A stretch of 64,000 nucleotides of DNA from Elusimicrobiota bacterium (GTDB lineage: Bacteria > Elusimicrobiota > Elusimicrobia > Elusimicrobiales > Elusimicrobiaceae): the NCBI GenBank assembly GCA_009778915.1, contig WRFH01000001.1, forward strand, positions 372,001 to 436,000, given 5' to 3'. Shown here one piece after another: positions 10,552 to 42,296 of this stretch. The first letter of the stretch is position 1; every line of letters starts with the position of its first letter. A program made the translations under genes and the position numbers. The notes beneath the pieces were generated by a model, which was not told the DNA's origin, searched no databases, and worked only from the letters and a program-made list of their open reading frames with translations.

Positions 10552-11319
10552 GACGTAGAGCGTGATGGTCGTAGTCCGGAGAACTTTGTTGAAGATTTTG
10601 TAGGCCACTATAATTTTGCTGCCCTGCGCGATATCCCGCACTTTATTTTTGAACCCGGTTTCCCGCCCTAAAATTTCCTGCAGCAGGCGGGACGGGTTGG
10701 CGCTGTCTATCCTGTTAATAAGCGGCGACAGCGTGCCGTTTTTGTAAGTCAATACTATTTTTTTTGACTGCGGCGTAAAATTGTCGCACAGCACCGTGTT
10801 GGCGGAGTTATTTATGACGGCGTTCGCGTCGTAGCCGTCGGCTCCGCCGGCCGTAAACTTTTTATCCGCGAAATTATATTCAAGCGGAAAATAGGAAGTT
10901 ATTATAAAATCCGGGGACTCATATGTGTCCGCCTTAAAAATATCGGCGTTGGTCCCGTTTTTAAACTGCAGGCCGGGAAGGCCGAAATCGTCCGGTTTTT
11001 TAAATTCTATGCCGGCGGGATTACAGTTCTGCGGTATATTATTGATAAAAAATTCTTTGCTTTGGTTGTAGCCGACGTGCAGCGGGTCCGCCCTTTTTAT
11101 AAAGGAGTCGTTTGTCTCGAAACACTGTATTCCGTTTTGCTGGACCGGCTGGATGTTGACCGGTAAAATATCCAGCTTTATGTTTTCGCTTTCCGAGGAC
11201 TGCAGGGTTCTGGCCGCCGCCAGGTCATGGAAGAAATTGTCTTCCACGCCCGCGTAAGCGGTTATTAACAGCAACGGCGCCGCGAGTACGGCGAGAAATA
11301 TTTTACCGCGTGTCATCAT
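10543..11319 (-). CDS. Exported hypothetical protein
   Basis: N-terminal signal peptide-like segment KIFLAVLAAPLLLITAYAG; convergent with mgtA, 9 bp overlap. Confidence 0.6.
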   Translation of the reverse strand: MMTRGKIFLAVLAAPLLLITAYAGVEDNFFHDLAAARTLQSSESENIKLDILPVNIQPVQQNGIQCFETNDSFIKRADPLHVGYNQSKEFFINNIPQNCNPAGIEFKKPDDFGLPGLQFKNGTNADIFKADTYESPDFIITSYFPLEYNFADKKFTAGGADGYDANAVINNSANTVLCDNFTPQSKKIVLTYKNGTLSPLINRIDSANPSRLLQEILGRETGFKNKVRDIAQGSKIIVAYKIFNKVLRTTTITLYVLK

Positions 11320-11435
11320 ACTGCTACATATTAAGAAAATTTTTAAAACAGCGCAAGGGCCAAAGGGCCTATTTTGGTTTTAGGCCCGGCTGGGCGCGGG
11401 CGGGTTTGGGTTAAATCTGATAAAATATAAAAAAC

Positions 11436-36267: not shown

Positions 36268-36305
36268 TGATACCACCCGTCCTTAGAACGGGTGGTATTT
36301 TTTTA
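36268..36305 (+). terminator. Terminator (bidirectional)
   Basis: ATACCACCCGTccttagAACGGGTGGTAT then T7; lies between convergent genes. Confidence 0.85.
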
Positions 36306-39128
36306 TTTAAACTCTTTTTTTAGATATTTGGCGGTGTAGGATTCTTTGGCGTTCAGAATGTCTCTCGGCGTGCCCTCGGCTATTATGTAGCCGCCTTTGT
36401 CGCCGCCTTCGGGACCAAGGTCTATCACCCAGTCCGCGGTTTTGATGATATCCAGATTGTGCTCTATTATCAGCACCGTGTTGCCTGTGTCTGACAGACG
36501 GTGCAGCACGCCCAGCAGCTTGTCGATGTCCGCCATATGAAGGCCCGTCGTAGGCTCGTCTAAAATATATAAAGTCTTGCCGGTGGCGCGGCGGCTTAAC
36601 TCGTGCGCCAGCTTGACGCGTTGCGCTTCCCCGCCGGAAAGCGTCGTCGCGCTCTGGCCAAGTTTTATGTAACCCAGACCAACGTCGTCCAGCGTTTTCA
36701 TTATTTTTTGAATCCTCGGGATATTGTCAAAAAATTGCACGGCCTGCGTCACGCTCATGTCCAGCACGTCGGCAATGCTTTTCCCTTTGAAATGGACGGA
36801 CAAAGTGTCCTCGTTAAATCTTTTGCCGTTGCACTCCTCGCACTTGACATAAATGTCCGGCAGAAACTGCATCTGGATTTTCAAAATTCCGTCGCCCTCG
36901 CACTTCTCGCACCTGCCGCCTTTTACGTTAAAGGAAAATCTGCCCGGGCCGTAACCGCGGCGTTTAGCTTCCGGCATTTGCGCGAACAAGTCCCGTATAT
37001 GTCCGAAGACGCCGGTGTAGGTCGCCGGGTTAGAGCGCGGCGTTTTGCCGATGGGACTTTGGTCAACGATAACCACTTTGTCAATGTGCTCAAGCCCTTT
37101 GATGGCTTTGTGTTCGCCGGGGATGTCCTTGGCGTTATAAAATTTTTGCGCCAGCGCTTTGTAAAGCACCTGGTGCACGAGGGTAGACTTGCCGCTGCCG
37201 GACACGCCCGTTATGCAGACAAACAGGCCGAGCGGGATTTTTACGTCGATATTTTTGAGGTTAAATTGTTTCGCGCCGATAATCTCCAGCCACTTGTCGC
37301 CCGGCTCCTGCGGTTCCGGATTGTGGTCGACTTTCAGCGTGCCGTTCAAATATTTTGCGGTCAGCGCGTCAGGATTTTTCAAAAAATCGGCCAGCGGTTC
37401 GGACGCTGTTATTTTCCCGCCGTACTCGCCCGCGCGGGGGCCTATTTCGACAATATGGTCCGCCGCTAAAATTGTGTCTTTGTCATGCTCGACGATAATC
37501 AGCGTGTTGTCCAAATCCCGCAGACTTTTGAGTGTGGAAATCAGCCTGTCATTGTCGCGCGGGTGGAGGCCGATGGTCGGCTCGTCAAGCACGTAAAGCA
37601 CGCCGGTTAGCCCGCTGCCTATTTGCGTCGCCAAATGTATGCGCTGACTTTCCCCGCCGGACAGCGTCTGGCTTTTGCGTTCCAGCGTCAGGTAACTCAG
37701 GCCCACGCTGTCTAGGAAACCCAAGCGGCTTTTTATTTCTTTAATAACTTCTTTGGAAATAATTTTTTCTTTTTCTGTGAACTGCAACTCGTTAAAAAAT
37801 TTCATCGCTTCGCCGACTTGGAGTTGCGTTACCTGGGAAATATTTTTGCCGCCAACTTTGACGGCCAGCGCCTCCGGTTTCAGACGGGCGCCTTTGCAGG
37901 CCGGGCAGATATTTTCCCTCATAAATTTATTGTAAATTTCTTCCCGGACAAATTCGGATTCAGACTCCGCGTGGCGGCGGTTTAAGTTGCCGATGACGCC
38001 CTCAAATTCCGTCTCATTATATCCCCACGAAGATTTGTAAGTGCTGCCGTTTCCGCCGTACAAAATTATATTGTGCTGGGCTTTTGTCAATTTGTTCCAC
38101 GGCACGGTCATCGAGATTTTATTTTGGCGGCAAATCTGTTTCAAAATATCATAATAATAACCGGCCCAGCTGCCTGACCAGCGGTTAGTGCGGTTTGTGA
38201 CGGGCGAATCCCAGGCGGCTATCGCGCCCTCGTTAAGCGCGAGCTTGCCGTCGGGGACCACCAAATCTTCGGCCACTTCTATTTTTATGCCCAGCCCATT
38301 GCACTCCGGGCACGCGCCGTAGGGGGAATTGAAGGAAAAAAGTCTGGGCTCCAGTTCGGAAAATCCTATGCCGCAGGCGGCGCACGCGTAATTCTCGCTG
38401 TAAGTAAAATCTTTTTTACCGTCTGAGATTGTCACGAGGCCGCGCGAATATTTGACTGCGGTTTCAATGCTTTCCGTCAGCCTTTCTTTGTCCGCCGCGT
38501 CGACCGAAATTTCGTCCGTCAGAATATCGATGGTATGTTTTTTGTAACGTTCTAAGACGGGCGCGACGGCCAGCGTGATTACCGCGCCGTTAACGCGCGC
38601 TTTGACAAAACCTTCTTTTTTAAATCTTGCAAACAGTTCCTCATAAGTTCCCGCGCGGCCGCGCACGACGGGAGAGAGCACCATAACGGTTTGCCCGTTA
38701 AATTTTTTAAGTATGTCGGCGGTGATAGCCTGCACGCTCCACGCCTCGACTTCCTGTCCGCAGTGCGGGCAGAACCTGTGCCCCACGCGCGCGTAGAGAA
38801 GGCGCAGATAATCATAAAGTTCCGTAACGGTGGCGACGGTGGAACGCGGGTTTTTGCTCGGGTTTCTCTGTTCGATTGAGATGGCGGGGGAAAGGCCTTC
38901 AATGTGTTCCACGTCGGGCTTTTCCATCAGTTCCAGAAACTGGCGGGCGTAGGCGGACATGGATTCGACGTAACGCCGCTGTCCTTCGGCGTAAATAGTG
39001 TCAAACGCTAGCGAACTTTTTCCGCTGCCGGACAATCCGGTAATAACCGTCATTTTTCCGCGCGGAATGTCGACGGAAATATTTTTTAAATTATGCGTTT
39101 TTGCGCCTTTGATTTTGATGAAGTCCAT
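36303..39128 (-). CDS. uvrA: Excinuclease ABC subunit A
   Basis: GAKTHNLKNISVDIPRGKMTVITGLSGSGKSSLAFDTIYAEGQRRYVESMSAYARQFLE; GVSGSGKSTLVHQVL; LSGGEAQRVKLAHEL. Confidence 0.97.
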   Translation of the reverse strand: MDFIKIKGAKTHNLKNISVDIPRGKMTVITGLSGSGKSSLAFDTIYAEGQRRYVESMSAYARQFLELMEKPDVEHIEGLSPAISIEQRNPSKNPRSTVATVTELYDYLRLLYARVGHRFCPHCGQEVEAWSVQAITADILKKFNGQTVMVLSPVVRGRAGTYEELFARFKKEGFVKARVNGAVITLAVAPVLERYKKHTIDILTDEISVDAADKERLTESIETAVKYSRGLVTISDGKKDFTYSENYACAACGIGFSELEPRLFSFNSPYGACPECNGLGIKIEVAEDLVVPDGKLALNEGAIAAWDSPVTNRTNRWSGSWAGYYYDILKQICRQNKISMTVPWNKLTKAQHNIILYGGNGSTYKSSWGYNETEFEGVIGNLNRRHAESESEFVREEIYNKFMRENICPACKGARLKPEALAVKVGGKNISQVTQLQVGEAMKFFNELQFTEKEKIISKEVIKEIKSRLGFLDSVGLSYLTLERKSQTLSGGESQRIHLATQIGSGLTGVLYVLDEPTIGLHPRDNDRLISTLKSLRDLDNTLIIVEHDKDTILAADHIVEIGPRAGEYGGKITASEPLADFLKNPDALTAKYLNGTLKVDHNPEPQEPGDKWLEIIGAKQFNLKNIDVKIPLGLFVCITGVSGSGKSTLVHQVLYKALAQKFYNAKDIPGEHKAIKGLEHIDKVVIVDQSPIGKTPRSNPATYTGVFGHIRDLFAQMPEAKRRGYGPGRFSFNVKGGRCEKCEGDGILKIQMQFLPDIYVKCEECNGKRFNEDTLSVHFKGKSIADVLDMSVTQAVQFFDNIPRIQKIMKTLDDVGLGYIKLGQSATTLSGGEAQRVKLAHELSRRATGKTLYILDEPTTGLHMADIDKLLGVLHRLSDTGNTVLIIEHNLDIIKTADWVIDLGPEGGDKGGYIIAEGTPRDILNAKESYTAKYLKKEFK

Positions 39129-39186: not shown

Positions 39187-39870
39187 TCAGGGGAGGCGCA
39201 GGAAGGCTACTACGAGGCCGTAAATTTCCGGCATTTCTTTACTTTTGGTGTGTTTGGCGCCGTCTCTTAATATTACGCCGTCTTTGAGAAACGAGACTTT
39301 CCTTATGCAGTATTTGGAATCAATTTTTAACAGCGCGGTTTTGCCGTCGCTGACTTTCTCCGTCGGGTTTATTATCGCGTATTCGCCTTTTGACGCGCCG
39401 GAAAAAACTTTGTCGTCGCCTATTTTAAAAGCGAAAGGCTGTTTATCGTCAAGGTTTTCAAACAAAAGCGGCAGATAGCCGTCCGACGAATAAAAAGGCA
39501 GGTCAAAAAAGCTGCCGCGGACGACGTCTCTTATCGGTATATGTTTTGCGCGCGGATAGCGGCCGGGCTCGTACGGGGCCGCGGCGTCGCGTACTCCGCC
39601 GGCGCCTTCCGCTCCGGAAATACTGTTGTAGAGCACGCTGTGCTTCTGCGCCAGAATTTCAGATGGGCATGGATGGTCGTCCTGAAAATAAGCAACCGGC
39701 ACGCCGAACTCTTTGGCAAGCCGGCGTTTGCTGTCCATACTGGGGTTTATGCGGCCGCGCGCCCACTGTGAAATTACGCTTGAATTTAACAGCCCCAGTT
39801 TTTTAGTAAGCTCCACTTTTGTAAGGCCTTTTTCTTTCCTCAGCTTTTCTATCTTTTCTCCGACTTTCAT
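39187..39870 (-). CDS. XRE-family HTH regulator with C-terminal S24/LexA-like domain
   Basis: HTH MKVGEKIEKLRKEKGLTKVELTKKLGLLNSSVISQWARGRINPS; C-terminal AFKIGDDKVFSGASKGEYAIINP...GKTALLKIDSKYCIRKV...IYGLVVAFLRL. Confidence 0.82.
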   Translation of the reverse strand: MKVGEKIEKLRKEKGLTKVELTKKLGLLNSSVISQWARGRINPSMDSKRRLAKEFGVPVAYFQDDHPCPSEILAQKHSVLYNSISGAEGAGGVRDAAAPYEPGRYPRAKHIPIRDVVRGSFFDLPFYSSDGYLPLLFENLDDKQPFAFKIGDDKVFSGASKGEYAIINPTEKVSDGKTALLKIDSKYCIRKVSFLKDGVILRDGAKHTKSKEMPEIYGLVVAFLRLP

Positions 39871-39940
39871 AAACTCCCTCGGTTTTTTAAATTTCTAAAA
39901 TAATCGTATCAGTATTTTAACATATTTTTGGCAATAAAAC

Positions 39941-39969
39941 TTGACAGATTTTAATATATCTGATAAAAT
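39941..39969 (+). promoter_or_regulatory. Consensus-like promoter for rightward cassette
   Basis: TTGACA-17 bp-TAAAAT. Confidence 0.85.
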
Positions 39970-39987
39970 CGTATCAGATTTGATACG
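39958..39987. promoter_or_regulatory. Overlapping palindromic operators for the XRE/S24 regulator
   Basis: ATCTGATA-N6-TATCAGAT (39958-39979) and CGTATCA-GATT-TGATACG (39970-39987), straddling -10; extra CGTATCAG half at 39904. Confidence 0.75.
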
Positions 39988-40020
39988 GTTTTTCAAACCG
40001 TTCATTTCTTAAACGGCCGG

Positions 40021-40137
40021 GTTCCGCGGGTTAAGCCCGCGCAACGGAAACGCGCGCGGGCGAGACGGCTCTCCCAACCCCCGTTCCGCCTTCGGCGGCG
40101 GGGCGCCGCAAAAAAAGCGGCAACCACCCCGCGGAAC
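40021..40137 (+). ncRNA. Candidate structured leader RNA / ncRNA
   Basis: Closing stem GTTCCGCGGG (40021-40030)/CCCGCGGAAC (40128-40137); internal GCCCGCGC/GCGCGGGC, CCGCC-TTCG-GCGG and GCCGC-A7-GCGGC helices. Confidence 0.6.
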
Positions 40138-40163
40138 TTTTGGCCTTAAACGAGAGGGTTTAA

Positions 40164-40478
40164 ATGGAGGACAAATGCTTAAAAAAGGATAATAAAAAAA
40201 TCTCTTCCGGGGCGGATTTATATTTTTTTATCCATGACATGCTTGAAAAAAGGGAAGACCTTATGCCCCTTGTTCGTGAGTTTGAGGAAATTGACGCGAC
40301 GATTAAAAAATATTTTACCGGCGCGCCCAATTTTATAATAGGCCGTTACAGCGTTTGCGGGAAATGGGTTGAAAGAGACGTTGTGAAAGTGCCGCCTAAA
40401 GAGCTGAAAAAATATACGAAAAAAGAAAGGGTTTGGCAGATTGAAATAGCAACCACGGGTTTAAAAGGAGACTACTAA
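40164..40478 (+). CDS. Unrecognised small protein 1 (104 aa)
   Basis: ORF following GAGAGG RBS; ATG overlap with next ORF (TAATGG). Confidence 0.7.
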   Translation: MEDKCLKKDNKKISSGADLYFFIHDMLEKREDLMPLVREFEEIDATIKKYFTGAPNFIIGRYSVCGKWVERDVVKVPPKELKKYTKKERVWQIEIATTGLKGDY

Positions 40479-40891
40479 TGGACTACTTGAGCACAAGATG
40501 GTTTTTAGTAAAAAAATTAAGCGATGATAAAATAAAAATTTTTCATTCTCTTGAAACTGCGGCTTTTAACTACGCCGCGCGCGCGCGGAAGACTTATAAG
40601 GCGGATAAAGTCACTCCGCCGCTGTGGTGGCAGAGCGCGAGTGCTTTTTTGTGGGCCGAGGCCGGTTTCTATAAATACTGCGCCCGCGGAAATTACGTCA
40701 GAGAAATAGATTTTTTTGCCGCCTTTGTAAGAAACGCTTTGCCGGGCATCGGGGTTGTTCCGGCGGAACTTTTCGGCAGCATAAAACTTATGCATCAGTG
40801 CGATTTGCTTGTCAGAACGCTTCCTTATACTAATCATTTGACCACCTTAAGCAGTACCTCACTACCCTCCTCCCAGAGAACACTGGCATAA
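40478..40891 (+). CDS. Unrecognised small protein 2 (137 aa)
   Basis: ORF coupled to upstream gene, RBS AAAAGGAG; ends just before terminator. Confidence 0.65.
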   Translation: MDYLSTRWFLVKKLSDDKIKIFHSLETAAFNYAARARKTYKADKVTPPLWWQSASAFLWAEAGFYKYCARGNYVREIDFFAAFVRNALPGIGVVPAELFGSIKLMHQCDLLVRTLPYTNHLTTLSSTSLPSSQRTLA

Positions 40892-40898
40892 AAAATAA

Positions 40899-40928
40899 GG
40901 GGACGCTTTAAGCGTCCCCTTGTTTTTT
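40899..40928 (+). terminator. Rho-independent terminator
   Basis: GGGGACGCTTtAAGCGTCCCC followed by TTGTTTTTT. Confidence 0.85.
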
Positions 40929-41031
40929 ATGACGTCTGAGGCGCGGGATGTTCCCAGGTCGTTTGCCGCTCCGCCGCTTTCGGTCGACTGGCCGAAGAAA
41001 TTTTTTTGGGGCACCCCGCGGCATAACGGCA

Positions 41032-41078: not shown

Positions 41079-42296
41079 CTACTTGGTGTTAAAGGCGTAC
41101 TTAAATGACAGTCCTATAAAATGGCTGGCGCCGTTGGTGTACTTTATCGGCGCGCCCGAGTTCGTTACGCCGGATAAATCGCTGCCGGCAAGATACGAAT
41201 AAGACGCGTCCAAGCCCCATACTCCGGTATTGTAACCCGCGCCGACGCTGAAAATATTTCTGTCGTCGACCGGCACAATCGTATCCATATGATTGGGATT
41301 TATCGGGCTGCCGTCGTAGACGTAGCCGGCTCTGACCGCCCAGTTGTTGTCCAGTTTATACTCGCCGCCGATATTGAAACGCGCGGCGTCCGTATAATTT
41401 TTCTGGTCTGCTACCGTGACAGGCAGGTTTTTATAATCTATTACTATAGCGTCGTATTTAGTCCAGAAGGTGCCGGTGATGCCGCCTTCAAGAACGAGTT
41501 TTGACGTCGGGCGGTATGAAATGCCGGCGGTAATGGAATCCGGTAAAGTCACTTTTCCGCGCGCGTCGCCCGAAGGAAGCGGGCCACCGTTGCCGCTTAC
41601 GCTGCCGTTTAAGTCCTGGCTCATTTGTGATTTATACGTCACGCCCAGAGCCCATTTGTCCGCCCAGTCAGGCTTGTATAAAAGGCCGACATTTCCGCCG
41701 AGGGACCAGCCTTTTCCGCTGATTTCCGGGTTGCCCATACCGAGGGGGGAGAATAAAAGGCTTTCAGAGAAATCCAAATACATAACCTCAAGACCGGCGG
41801 ACAGAGAGAGTTCGTCCGTGGCTTTAAAAGCCAGCACGGGCGCGAAAGAGTATGAGGTAAGGCTCACTTTATACGCTTCGCCTGCGGCGTACGCCCAGCT
41901 TGAGTAATCCTGATATTTCCCGGCGAGGCCGAAACGCGAGAACGCGCCGAAACCGAACGTAAACCTGTCGCTCAGTTTATGCGTGAAGTAAAGGTTGGGC
42001 AGTATAAACGACTGGTCTTCCAAATCTCTTGACATGCCGTTAATCGTCGTAGTGGCTCTCGGCAGAACCGCGGTGGCGCCCAGCTGCAGCTGCGTGCCGT
42101 CCAGTTCCGTAATAAGAGCGGGGTTCATGGCTATGGACGCGGGTTCCGCGTCATTTGCCATGACCGAACCGCCCATCGCGTTGCCGCGCGCGCTGAATTC
42201 ATAAAGGGCAAAACCCGCGCCCTGCACAGCGGTTGCTGCTGTGAATACTGCCAAAACAAACAACATTTTTAACAGCTTTGATGTGTTTTCTCTCAT
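41079..42296 (-). CDS. OmpP1/FadL/TodX-family outer membrane protein
   Basis: AGFALYEFSARGNAMGGSVMANDAEPASIAMNPALI; C-terminal FIGLSFKYAFNTK. Confidence 0.9.
   Translation of the reverse strand: MRENTSKLLKMLFVLAVFTAATAVQGAGFALYEFSARGNAMGGSVMANDAEPASIAMNPALITELDGTQLQLGATAVLPRATTTINGMSRDLEDQSFILPNLYFTHKLSDRFTFGFGAFSRFGLAGKYQDYSSWAYAAGEAYKVSLTSYSFAPVLAFKATDELSLSAGLEVMYLDFSESLLFSPLGMGNPEISGKGWSLGGNVGLLYKPDWADKWALGVTYKSQMSQDLNGSVSGNGGPLPSGDARGKVTLPDSITAGISYRPTSKLVLEGGITGTFWTKYDAIVIDYKNLPVTVADQKNYTDAARFNIGGEYKLDNNWAVRAGYVYDGSPINPNHMDTIVPVDDRNIFSVGAGYNTGVWGLDASYSYLAGSDLSGVTNSGAPIKYTNGASHFIGLSFKYAFNTK

What the first reader, a model, noticed from the sequence alone, without database searches (positions are those of the whole stretch)
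39187..40930. Compact divergent cassette: XRE/S24 repressor, consensus promoter, nested operators, structured leader RNA and two unrecognised small ORFs
Between uvrA and an OMP gene lies a self-contained unit. The leftward repressor has operators in the shared intergenic region. TTGACA-17-TAAAAT drives rightward transcription through a ~190 nt GC-rich leader into two translationally coupled small proteins (104 and 137 aa), closed by a strong terminator. I recognise neither protein. The layout resembles a phage immunity or stress-inducible module stripped to a minimal form. It is the best candidate here for an undescribed genetic system.
Basis: partly seen in the sequence, partly recalled or inferred. 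Interest (0 to 1): 0.76.

Follow-up and report, generated by a model that had tools for sequence, protein, structure and literature searches.

The report
Domesticated phage switch with new RNA
A gut-dwelling bacterial family has kept a scrap of an ancient virus: an off-switch protein controlling a short gene set that starts with an elaborately folded, previously uncatalogued RNA and a protein cut from a viral DNA-chewing enzyme, whose job is still unknown.

Summary
The cassette is real and conserved. It recurs in three or more genera of one Elusimicrobiota family, always single-copy. Its parts are: (1) a CI/LexA-type XRE repressor whose S24 domain has lost the catalytic serine, with three operator half-sites over the -10 of a near-consensus promoter that are essentially unique in most genomes; (2) a ~120-nt leader RNA that folds into a five-way junction, with 9 of 10 closing-stem pairs changed on both sides and an invariant GAGA-CGGC-UCUC hairpin, matching no Rfam family; (3) ORF1; (4) in a subset, ORF2. 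The RNA occurs in 15 genomes, always beside ORF1, and nowhere else in 341 Elusimicrobiota genomes.

ORF1 is recognisable: a free-standing copy of the C-terminal domain of phage Cas4-type exonucleases. In a fourth genus the same repressor faces ORF2, a Cas4-domain exonuclease and a phage-type replication initiator, i.e. a prophage early operon.

Closest working analogue: E. coli dicA-dicBF. Both proteins are under purifying selection, so this is domesticated, not debris. What the RNA and proteins do is inferred, not shown. ORF2 remains unidentified.

The parts
39187..39870 (-). XRE / LexA-CI-type repressor, 227 aa; S24 fold without catalytic Ser
   Evidence: Pfam HTH_3 E=2.9e-9; profile matches LexA and P22 C2 in PDB; catalytic Ser position is K here and E/A in relatives
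39906..39911 (.). extra GTATCA half-site near the repressor start, also present in G002
   Evidence: sequence
39941..39969 (+). rightward promoter TTGACA-17-TAAAAT
   Evidence: 11/12 matches; TTGACA and operator-embedded -10 kept in relatives
39961..39986 (.). operator: three alternating half-sites TGATAA-n4-GTATCA-n4-TGATAC over -10 and start region
   Evidence: palindrome occurs at only one place in G000
40016..40149 (+). conserved five-way-junction leader RNA
   Evidence: CM R1 84.4 bits, E=1.6e-18 (the window is a training sequence); z=-4.4; covariation; no Rfam hit at gathering score in relatives and only sub-threshold noise in the window
40021..40030 (+). P1 5' strand (pairs with 40128-40137)
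   Evidence: 9 of 10 pairs with changes on both sides, 100% of cells paired
40062..40073 (+). P3 hairpin GAGA-CGGC-UCUC, invariant in 14 leaders
40105..40121 (+). P5 hairpin GCCGC-A7-GCGGC
40128..40137 (+). P1 3' strand
   Evidence: (I22)
40164..40478 (+). ORF1, 104 aa: free-standing C-terminal domain of phage Cas4-type exonucleases
   Evidence: hhalign prob 98.2, E=2.9e-14; dN/dS 0.06-0.22; 16 genomes
40478..40891 (+). ORF2, 137 aa, unknown family, predicted helical (low confidence)
   Evidence: 10 genomes of four genera; dN/dS 0.21-0.40; no convincing Pfam/PHROG match
40816..40875 (+). G-poor, C-rich 3' stretch with CCTC/CTCC motifs, inside the ORF2 C-terminus here
   Evidence: no sampled window of the 20-kb locus is as G-poor and C-rich
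40887..40931 (.). terminator, 22-bp arms, could work on either strand

Best explanation
A domesticated remnant of a phage immunity/early region that works like E. coli dicA-dicBF. SHOWN by sequence: a CI/LexA-type repressor without the cleavage serine faces a near-consensus promoter whose -10 lies inside its conserved operator; the transcript begins with a conserved five-way-junction RNA, then encodes ORF1 (the tail domain of phage Cas4-type exonucleases, without the nuclease) and in some lineages ORF2; the set is single-copy, conserved and under purifying selection. INFERRED: the repressor keeps the promoter off; because it cannot cleave itself, an antirepressor, a ligand or stochastic loss turns it on; the burst of transcript delivers the RNA and ORF1. 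Because the RNA tracks ORF1 rather than ORF2, I think ORF1 and the RNA act together, either ORF1 binding its own leader as feedback or an RNA-protein complex. The most likely target is the exonuclease/annealing machinery of an incoming phage, with ORF1 as a nuclease-less decoy; a host target is possible.
For: Co-occurrence: RNA in 15 genomes, all beside ORF1, one per genome; repressor beside them; repressor and ORF1 distances correlate (Mantel r=0.80, 0/2000). RNA: all 14 leaders fold singly to the same junction with z -4.0 to -8.2; 50 cells with changes on both sides against 15.9 +/- 3.3 shuffled, 94% paired against 37-51% slid. Phage origin: ORF1 = tail of PHROG-1990 Cas4-domain exonucleases, also in an IMG/VR contig; in G004 the repressor faces ORF2, a Cas4-domain exonuclease ending just after the Fe-S cysteines, and a replication initiator. 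Function kept: dN/dS 0.06-0.22 for ORF1, 0.21-0.40 for ORF2. Single target: palindrome mostly at this locus only. dicA-dicBF: DicA lacks the cleavage bond, is relieved by antirepressor Rem, and DicF RNA is processed from the operon mRNA (PMC10448788).
Against: No expression, binding or phenotype data. The decoy role rests on domain origin only; what the tail domain does in the exonuclease was not found. The full-length exonuclease with tail was found in only two family genomes, both in the cassette-less genus, too few to support or refute a defence role. No antirepressor gene was identified. No structural-similarity hit for ORF1; ORF2 model unusable. The RNA could serve ORF1 expression only.
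Confidence: 0.6

Rival explanations
1. The RNA is purely a cis-acting leader: a feedback element or small-molecule sensor that sets ORF1 translation, with no trans or complex role.
For: Always directly 5' of ORF1, with the ribosome-binding site 3' of P1; tracks ORF1; the ORF1-less G004 lacks this RNA.
Against: The ribosome-binding site lies outside the conserved junction; no second conserved fold that hides it was seen; pairing with the C-rich tail is no better for the own tail than for other genomes' tails.
Confidence: 0.3
2. The RNA is a relic of phage early-transcript antitermination (like the put RNA of phage HK022), acting on RNA polymerase to read through terminators.
For: It sits at the start of an early-operon-type transcript; G004 also has a strongly structured, though different, leader before a longer phage-type operon (z=-4.4).
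Against: In the reduced cassette there is little to read through: about 0.7 kb and a strong terminator; no match to known elements. put itself is recalled from memory, not tested.
Confidence: 0.12
3. A toxin-antitoxin module: ORF1 or ORF2 a toxin, the RNA (type III-like) or the XRE protein its antitoxin.
For: XRE regulator next to small ORFs; RNA directly upstream of a small ORF.
Against: No convincing Pfam/NCBIfam/PADLOC match of either ORF to a toxin; RNA is not a tandem repeat and no terminator separates it from ORF1 in the window; ORF1 is an exonuclease tail domain; ORF2 missing in about half of the cassettes.
Confidence: 0.1
4. Non-functional prophage debris.
For: Clear phage ancestry; flanking genes differ between genera.
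Against: Strong purifying selection, compensatory RNA changes, operator kept in at least three genera.
Confidence: 0.04
5. SOS-inducible module through repressor self-cleavage.
For: C-terminal domain is LexA-like.
Against: Catalytic Ser replaced (K, E, A or C) and no Ala-Gly bond.
Confidence: 0.04

Closest known systems
E. coli Qin cryptic prophage dicA-dicBF (PMC10448788)
   Same: Non-cleavable XRE repressor represses one phage-type promoter; operon carries a functional RNA and small proteins; kept in the host chromosome
   Different: Here the RNA is a five-way junction at the 5' end, tightly tied to ORF1; no dicC/cro homologue or antirepressor found; none of the operon products was matched to DicB/DicF
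Phage early region with Cas4-domain exonuclease (PHROG 1990) and replication initiator
   Same: ORF1 is the exonuclease's tail domain; in G004 the same repressor and ORF2 precede such genes
   Different: The cassette lacks the nuclease domain, replication and structural genes; chromosomal and single-copy
LexA / P22 C2 repressors
   Same: HTH plus LexA-type C-terminal fold; divergent orientation; operator over the -10
   Different: Catalytic serine and cleavage bond lost; operator found at essentially one locus
Type III toxin-antitoxin (ToxIN)
   Same: RNA directly upstream of a small protein gene
   Different: No tandem repeats, no ToxN relative
Phage P1/P7/P22 c4 RNA and HK022 put RNA (from memory)
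   Same: Structured RNA at the start of a repressor-controlled phage transcript
   Different: No match found in Rfam searches; no antirepressor gene identified

Membership tests
Prophage early/immunity region | CI-type repressor divergent from an early promoter with operators over it | tested here: met
Prophage early/immunity region | recombination/replication genes in the operon | tested here: inconclusive
   Absent in the window; present in the G004 relative (Cas4 exonuclease, replication initiator); ORF1 is an exonuclease fragment
Prophage early/immunity region | integrase or structural genes nearby | tested here: not met
   Neighbours are uvrA, FadL-type OMP, ackA, pilins and other chromosomal genes; none seen among those scanned
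LexA/CI self-cleaving repressor | Ser-Lys dyad and Ala-Gly cleavage bond | tested here: not met
   Ser lost in all, Lys kept in most
dicA-dicBF type module | non-cleavable XRE repressor controlling RNA plus small proteins | tested here: met
   sequence architecture only; repression itself not tested
dicA-dicBF type module | antirepressor and cro-like partner | not tested
   no candidate was sought systematically
Type III toxin-antitoxin | tandem-repeat RNA antitoxin plus ToxN-fold endoribonuclease | tested here: not met
Any Rfam family | score above gathering threshold | tested here: not met
   none in 8 relatives at gathering score; only sub-threshold matches in the window
Full phage Cas4-type exonuclease | nuclease domain with Fe-S cysteines | tested here: not met
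   ORF1 matches only the region after the last Fe-S Cys

The most novel reading that the evidence does not exclude
A new kind of RNA-protein device: a five-way-junction RNA and a nuclease-less phage exonuclease tail protein form a complex, released by a non-cleavable repressor, that interferes with phage (or host) recombination. This would be an anti-phage or genome-stability system built from a phage's own early operon.
Probability: 0.2. Interest if true: 0.85.

Novelty: new variant of a known kind. Interest (0 to 1): 0.6.

Why it matters
It adds an RNA family that was not found in Rfam, with strong covariation and a fixed protein partner, in a little-studied phylum. It shows in several steps how a phage early operon (repressor, ORF2, exonuclease, replication initiator) can be reduced to a kept chromosomal switch. 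It also identifies a free-standing exonuclease tail domain, which makes the role of that domain in phage recombination testable.

Tried and rejected
(a) SOS/self-cleavage: the dyad is lost. (b) Known TA, defence or phage family for the two ORFs by Pfam, PHROGs, NCBIfam and PADLOC: none above noise. (c) Direct hits in phages, plasmids and IMG/VR with ORF1/ORF2: none (ORF2 was not run against plasmids); only the distant profile over the phylum showed the exonuclease link. (d) The RNA elsewhere: the hits outside Elusimicrobia in the genome-contig scan score like chance, and the weak CM hits in G114, G105 (second) and G100 have no cassette gene beside them; the G100 one lies inside an unrelated gene. 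(e) Cis pairing of the C-rich 3' tail with the ORF1 ribosome-binding site: no better for own than for foreign tails. (f) Structure search: ORF1 model pLDDT 69, no hit at E<=0.001; ORF2 model pLDDT 43, not usable. (g) Regulon: no genome-wide set of operators. (h) Rfam low-score hits in the window fall mostly on terminators. (i) Papers on Elusimicrobia with structured RNA: none relevant.

Full report
Observation. The unit sits between uvrA (36303-39128, -) and a FadL-type OMP gene (41079-42296, -) in a 1.27-Mb Elusimicrobiota genome, 66% complete.

Recurrence. ORF1 has relatives in 10 of 39 other near genomes, ORF2 in 5, and the repressor lies beside them where the contig allows. With profiles over 149 genomes of the order, ORF1 occurs in 16 genomes of three genera (g1, g2, g4) plus one exonuclease hit in g6, and ORF2 in 10 genomes of four genera. 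Genus g6, with dozens of genomes, and the sister family lack the cassette. Flanking genes differ between genera: uvrA/OMP, pilins, ackA, an epimerase, a radical SAM gene. It is one copy per genome.

The RNA. The leader contains a core invariant in 14 species (GAGACGGCUCUC). Each of 14 leaders, folded singly without constraint, gives the same five-way junction: P1 closing stem, P2, P3 (GAGA-CGGC-UCUC), P4 and P5 (mostly GCCGC-A7-GCGGC), with z from -4.0 to -8.2. On the model-fitted alignment 93.9% of cells pair (37-51% when slid), 14 pairs have changes on both sides (8.3 +/- 1.4 shuffled), and P1 alone has 9 of 10 such pairs with every cell paired. That alignment was fitted to the structure, so the counts lean towards it; the unconstrained MAFFT/RNAalifold run found 11 such pairs. 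G-U pairs kept on this strand would be C-A on the other, so this is the RNA strand. Covariance models over 341 genomes of the phylum find 15 good loci, all next to ORF1; the few remaining weak hits have no cassette gene beside them. G005 (g4) keeps ORF1 with a degenerate RNA that still has AGACGGCUCUCC. No Rfam family matches at gathering score.

Repressor. XRE HTH plus LexA-like C-terminal fold. The serine position holds K (window), E (G002), A (most of g2) or C (G004), while the lysine is kept in most; the Ala-Gly bond is absent. The operator is three alternating half-sites TGATAC-n4-GTATCA-n4-TGATAC covering the -10, kept with few changes in nearly all relatives. The palindrome occurs only at this locus in most genomes, i.e. 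a regulon of about one.

ORF1. No library match, but the family profile over the phylum finds the C-terminal part of 327-362-aa proteins in prophage-like contigs. These are Cas4-domain exonucleases (PHROG 1990, E down to 1.5e-25). Profile-profile comparison: probability 98.2, E=2.9e-14. The homology begins just after the last Fe-S cysteine. Relatives of these exonucleases occur in IMG/VR viral contigs, one read here with the tail. ORF1 is thus the free-standing tail without the nuclease. It is under strong purifying selection. AlphaFold gives helix-helix plus beta hairpin at moderate confidence.

The link to a phage operon. In G004 (genus g3) the same repressor faces, after a structured but different leader (z=-4.4), ORF2, then a 254-aa Cas4-domain exonuclease (PHROG 1990, 6.8e-10) that ends shortly after the Fe-S cysteines, then a phage-type replication initiator (PHROG 9474, 9e-11). 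This is the layout of a prophage early region with no structural genes seen near it. ORF1 is missing there and so is the five-way-junction RNA.

3' end. In every cassette examined except G005 the transcript ends in a stretch with extremely few Gs and many Cs; windows as extreme occur 0-7 times (itself included) among the sampled windows of each locus. In g2 cassettes without ORF2 it carries CTCC/CCTCC motifs and is closed by a stem before the terminator. Specific pairing with the ORF1 ribosome-binding site was tested and not supported. Its role is open.

Mechanism. Shown: parts, conservation, RNA fold by covariation, phage ancestry. Inferred: repression, non-SOS release, joint action of RNA and ORF1, and a target in phage recombination. 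The nearest working analogue is dicA-dicBF, where a repressor lacking the cleavage bond, relieved by an antirepressor, controls an operon with a processed RNA and small proteins (PMC10448788). I give 0.6 to the domesticated-switch account as a whole, well under half of that to the decoy idea.

Novelty. New variant of a known kind: a domesticated phage switch, with a new RNA family, an exonuclease-tail protein as RNA companion, and one unidentified protein.

Noticed in passing
L133:5717-6739, L147, L148 (G083, G096): Full-length Cas4-type exonuclease with the ORF1-like tail was found in the family only in two genomes of g6, the genus without the cassette; 83-85% identical copies are in IMG/VR contigs. 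Compatible with exclusion by the cassette but far too few to test.
   Followed up: partly
window 40816-40875; L041:9290-9432; L047:6-148: G-poor, C-rich transcript end with repeated CTCC/CCTCC, in ORF2-less g2 cassettes inside a large loop closed by a covarying-looking stem just before the terminator; looks like an anti-Shine-Dalgarno seed region.
   Followed up: partly
L048:7545-7700: G004 leader folds differently (long hairpin, z=-4.4) but contains CCAGACAGCUCCC, similar to the invariant GAGACGGCUCUCCC core.
   Followed up: partly
L038:8359-8955 and 10829-11320: In G002 the cassette is flanked on both sides by type IV pilin-like genes, one with a ComP_DUS match.
   Followed up: no
L065, L080 (G101): ORF1/ORF2 region: G101 has the longest leader RNA and an ORF2 extended by a basic Pro/Lys-rich tail.
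   Followed up: no
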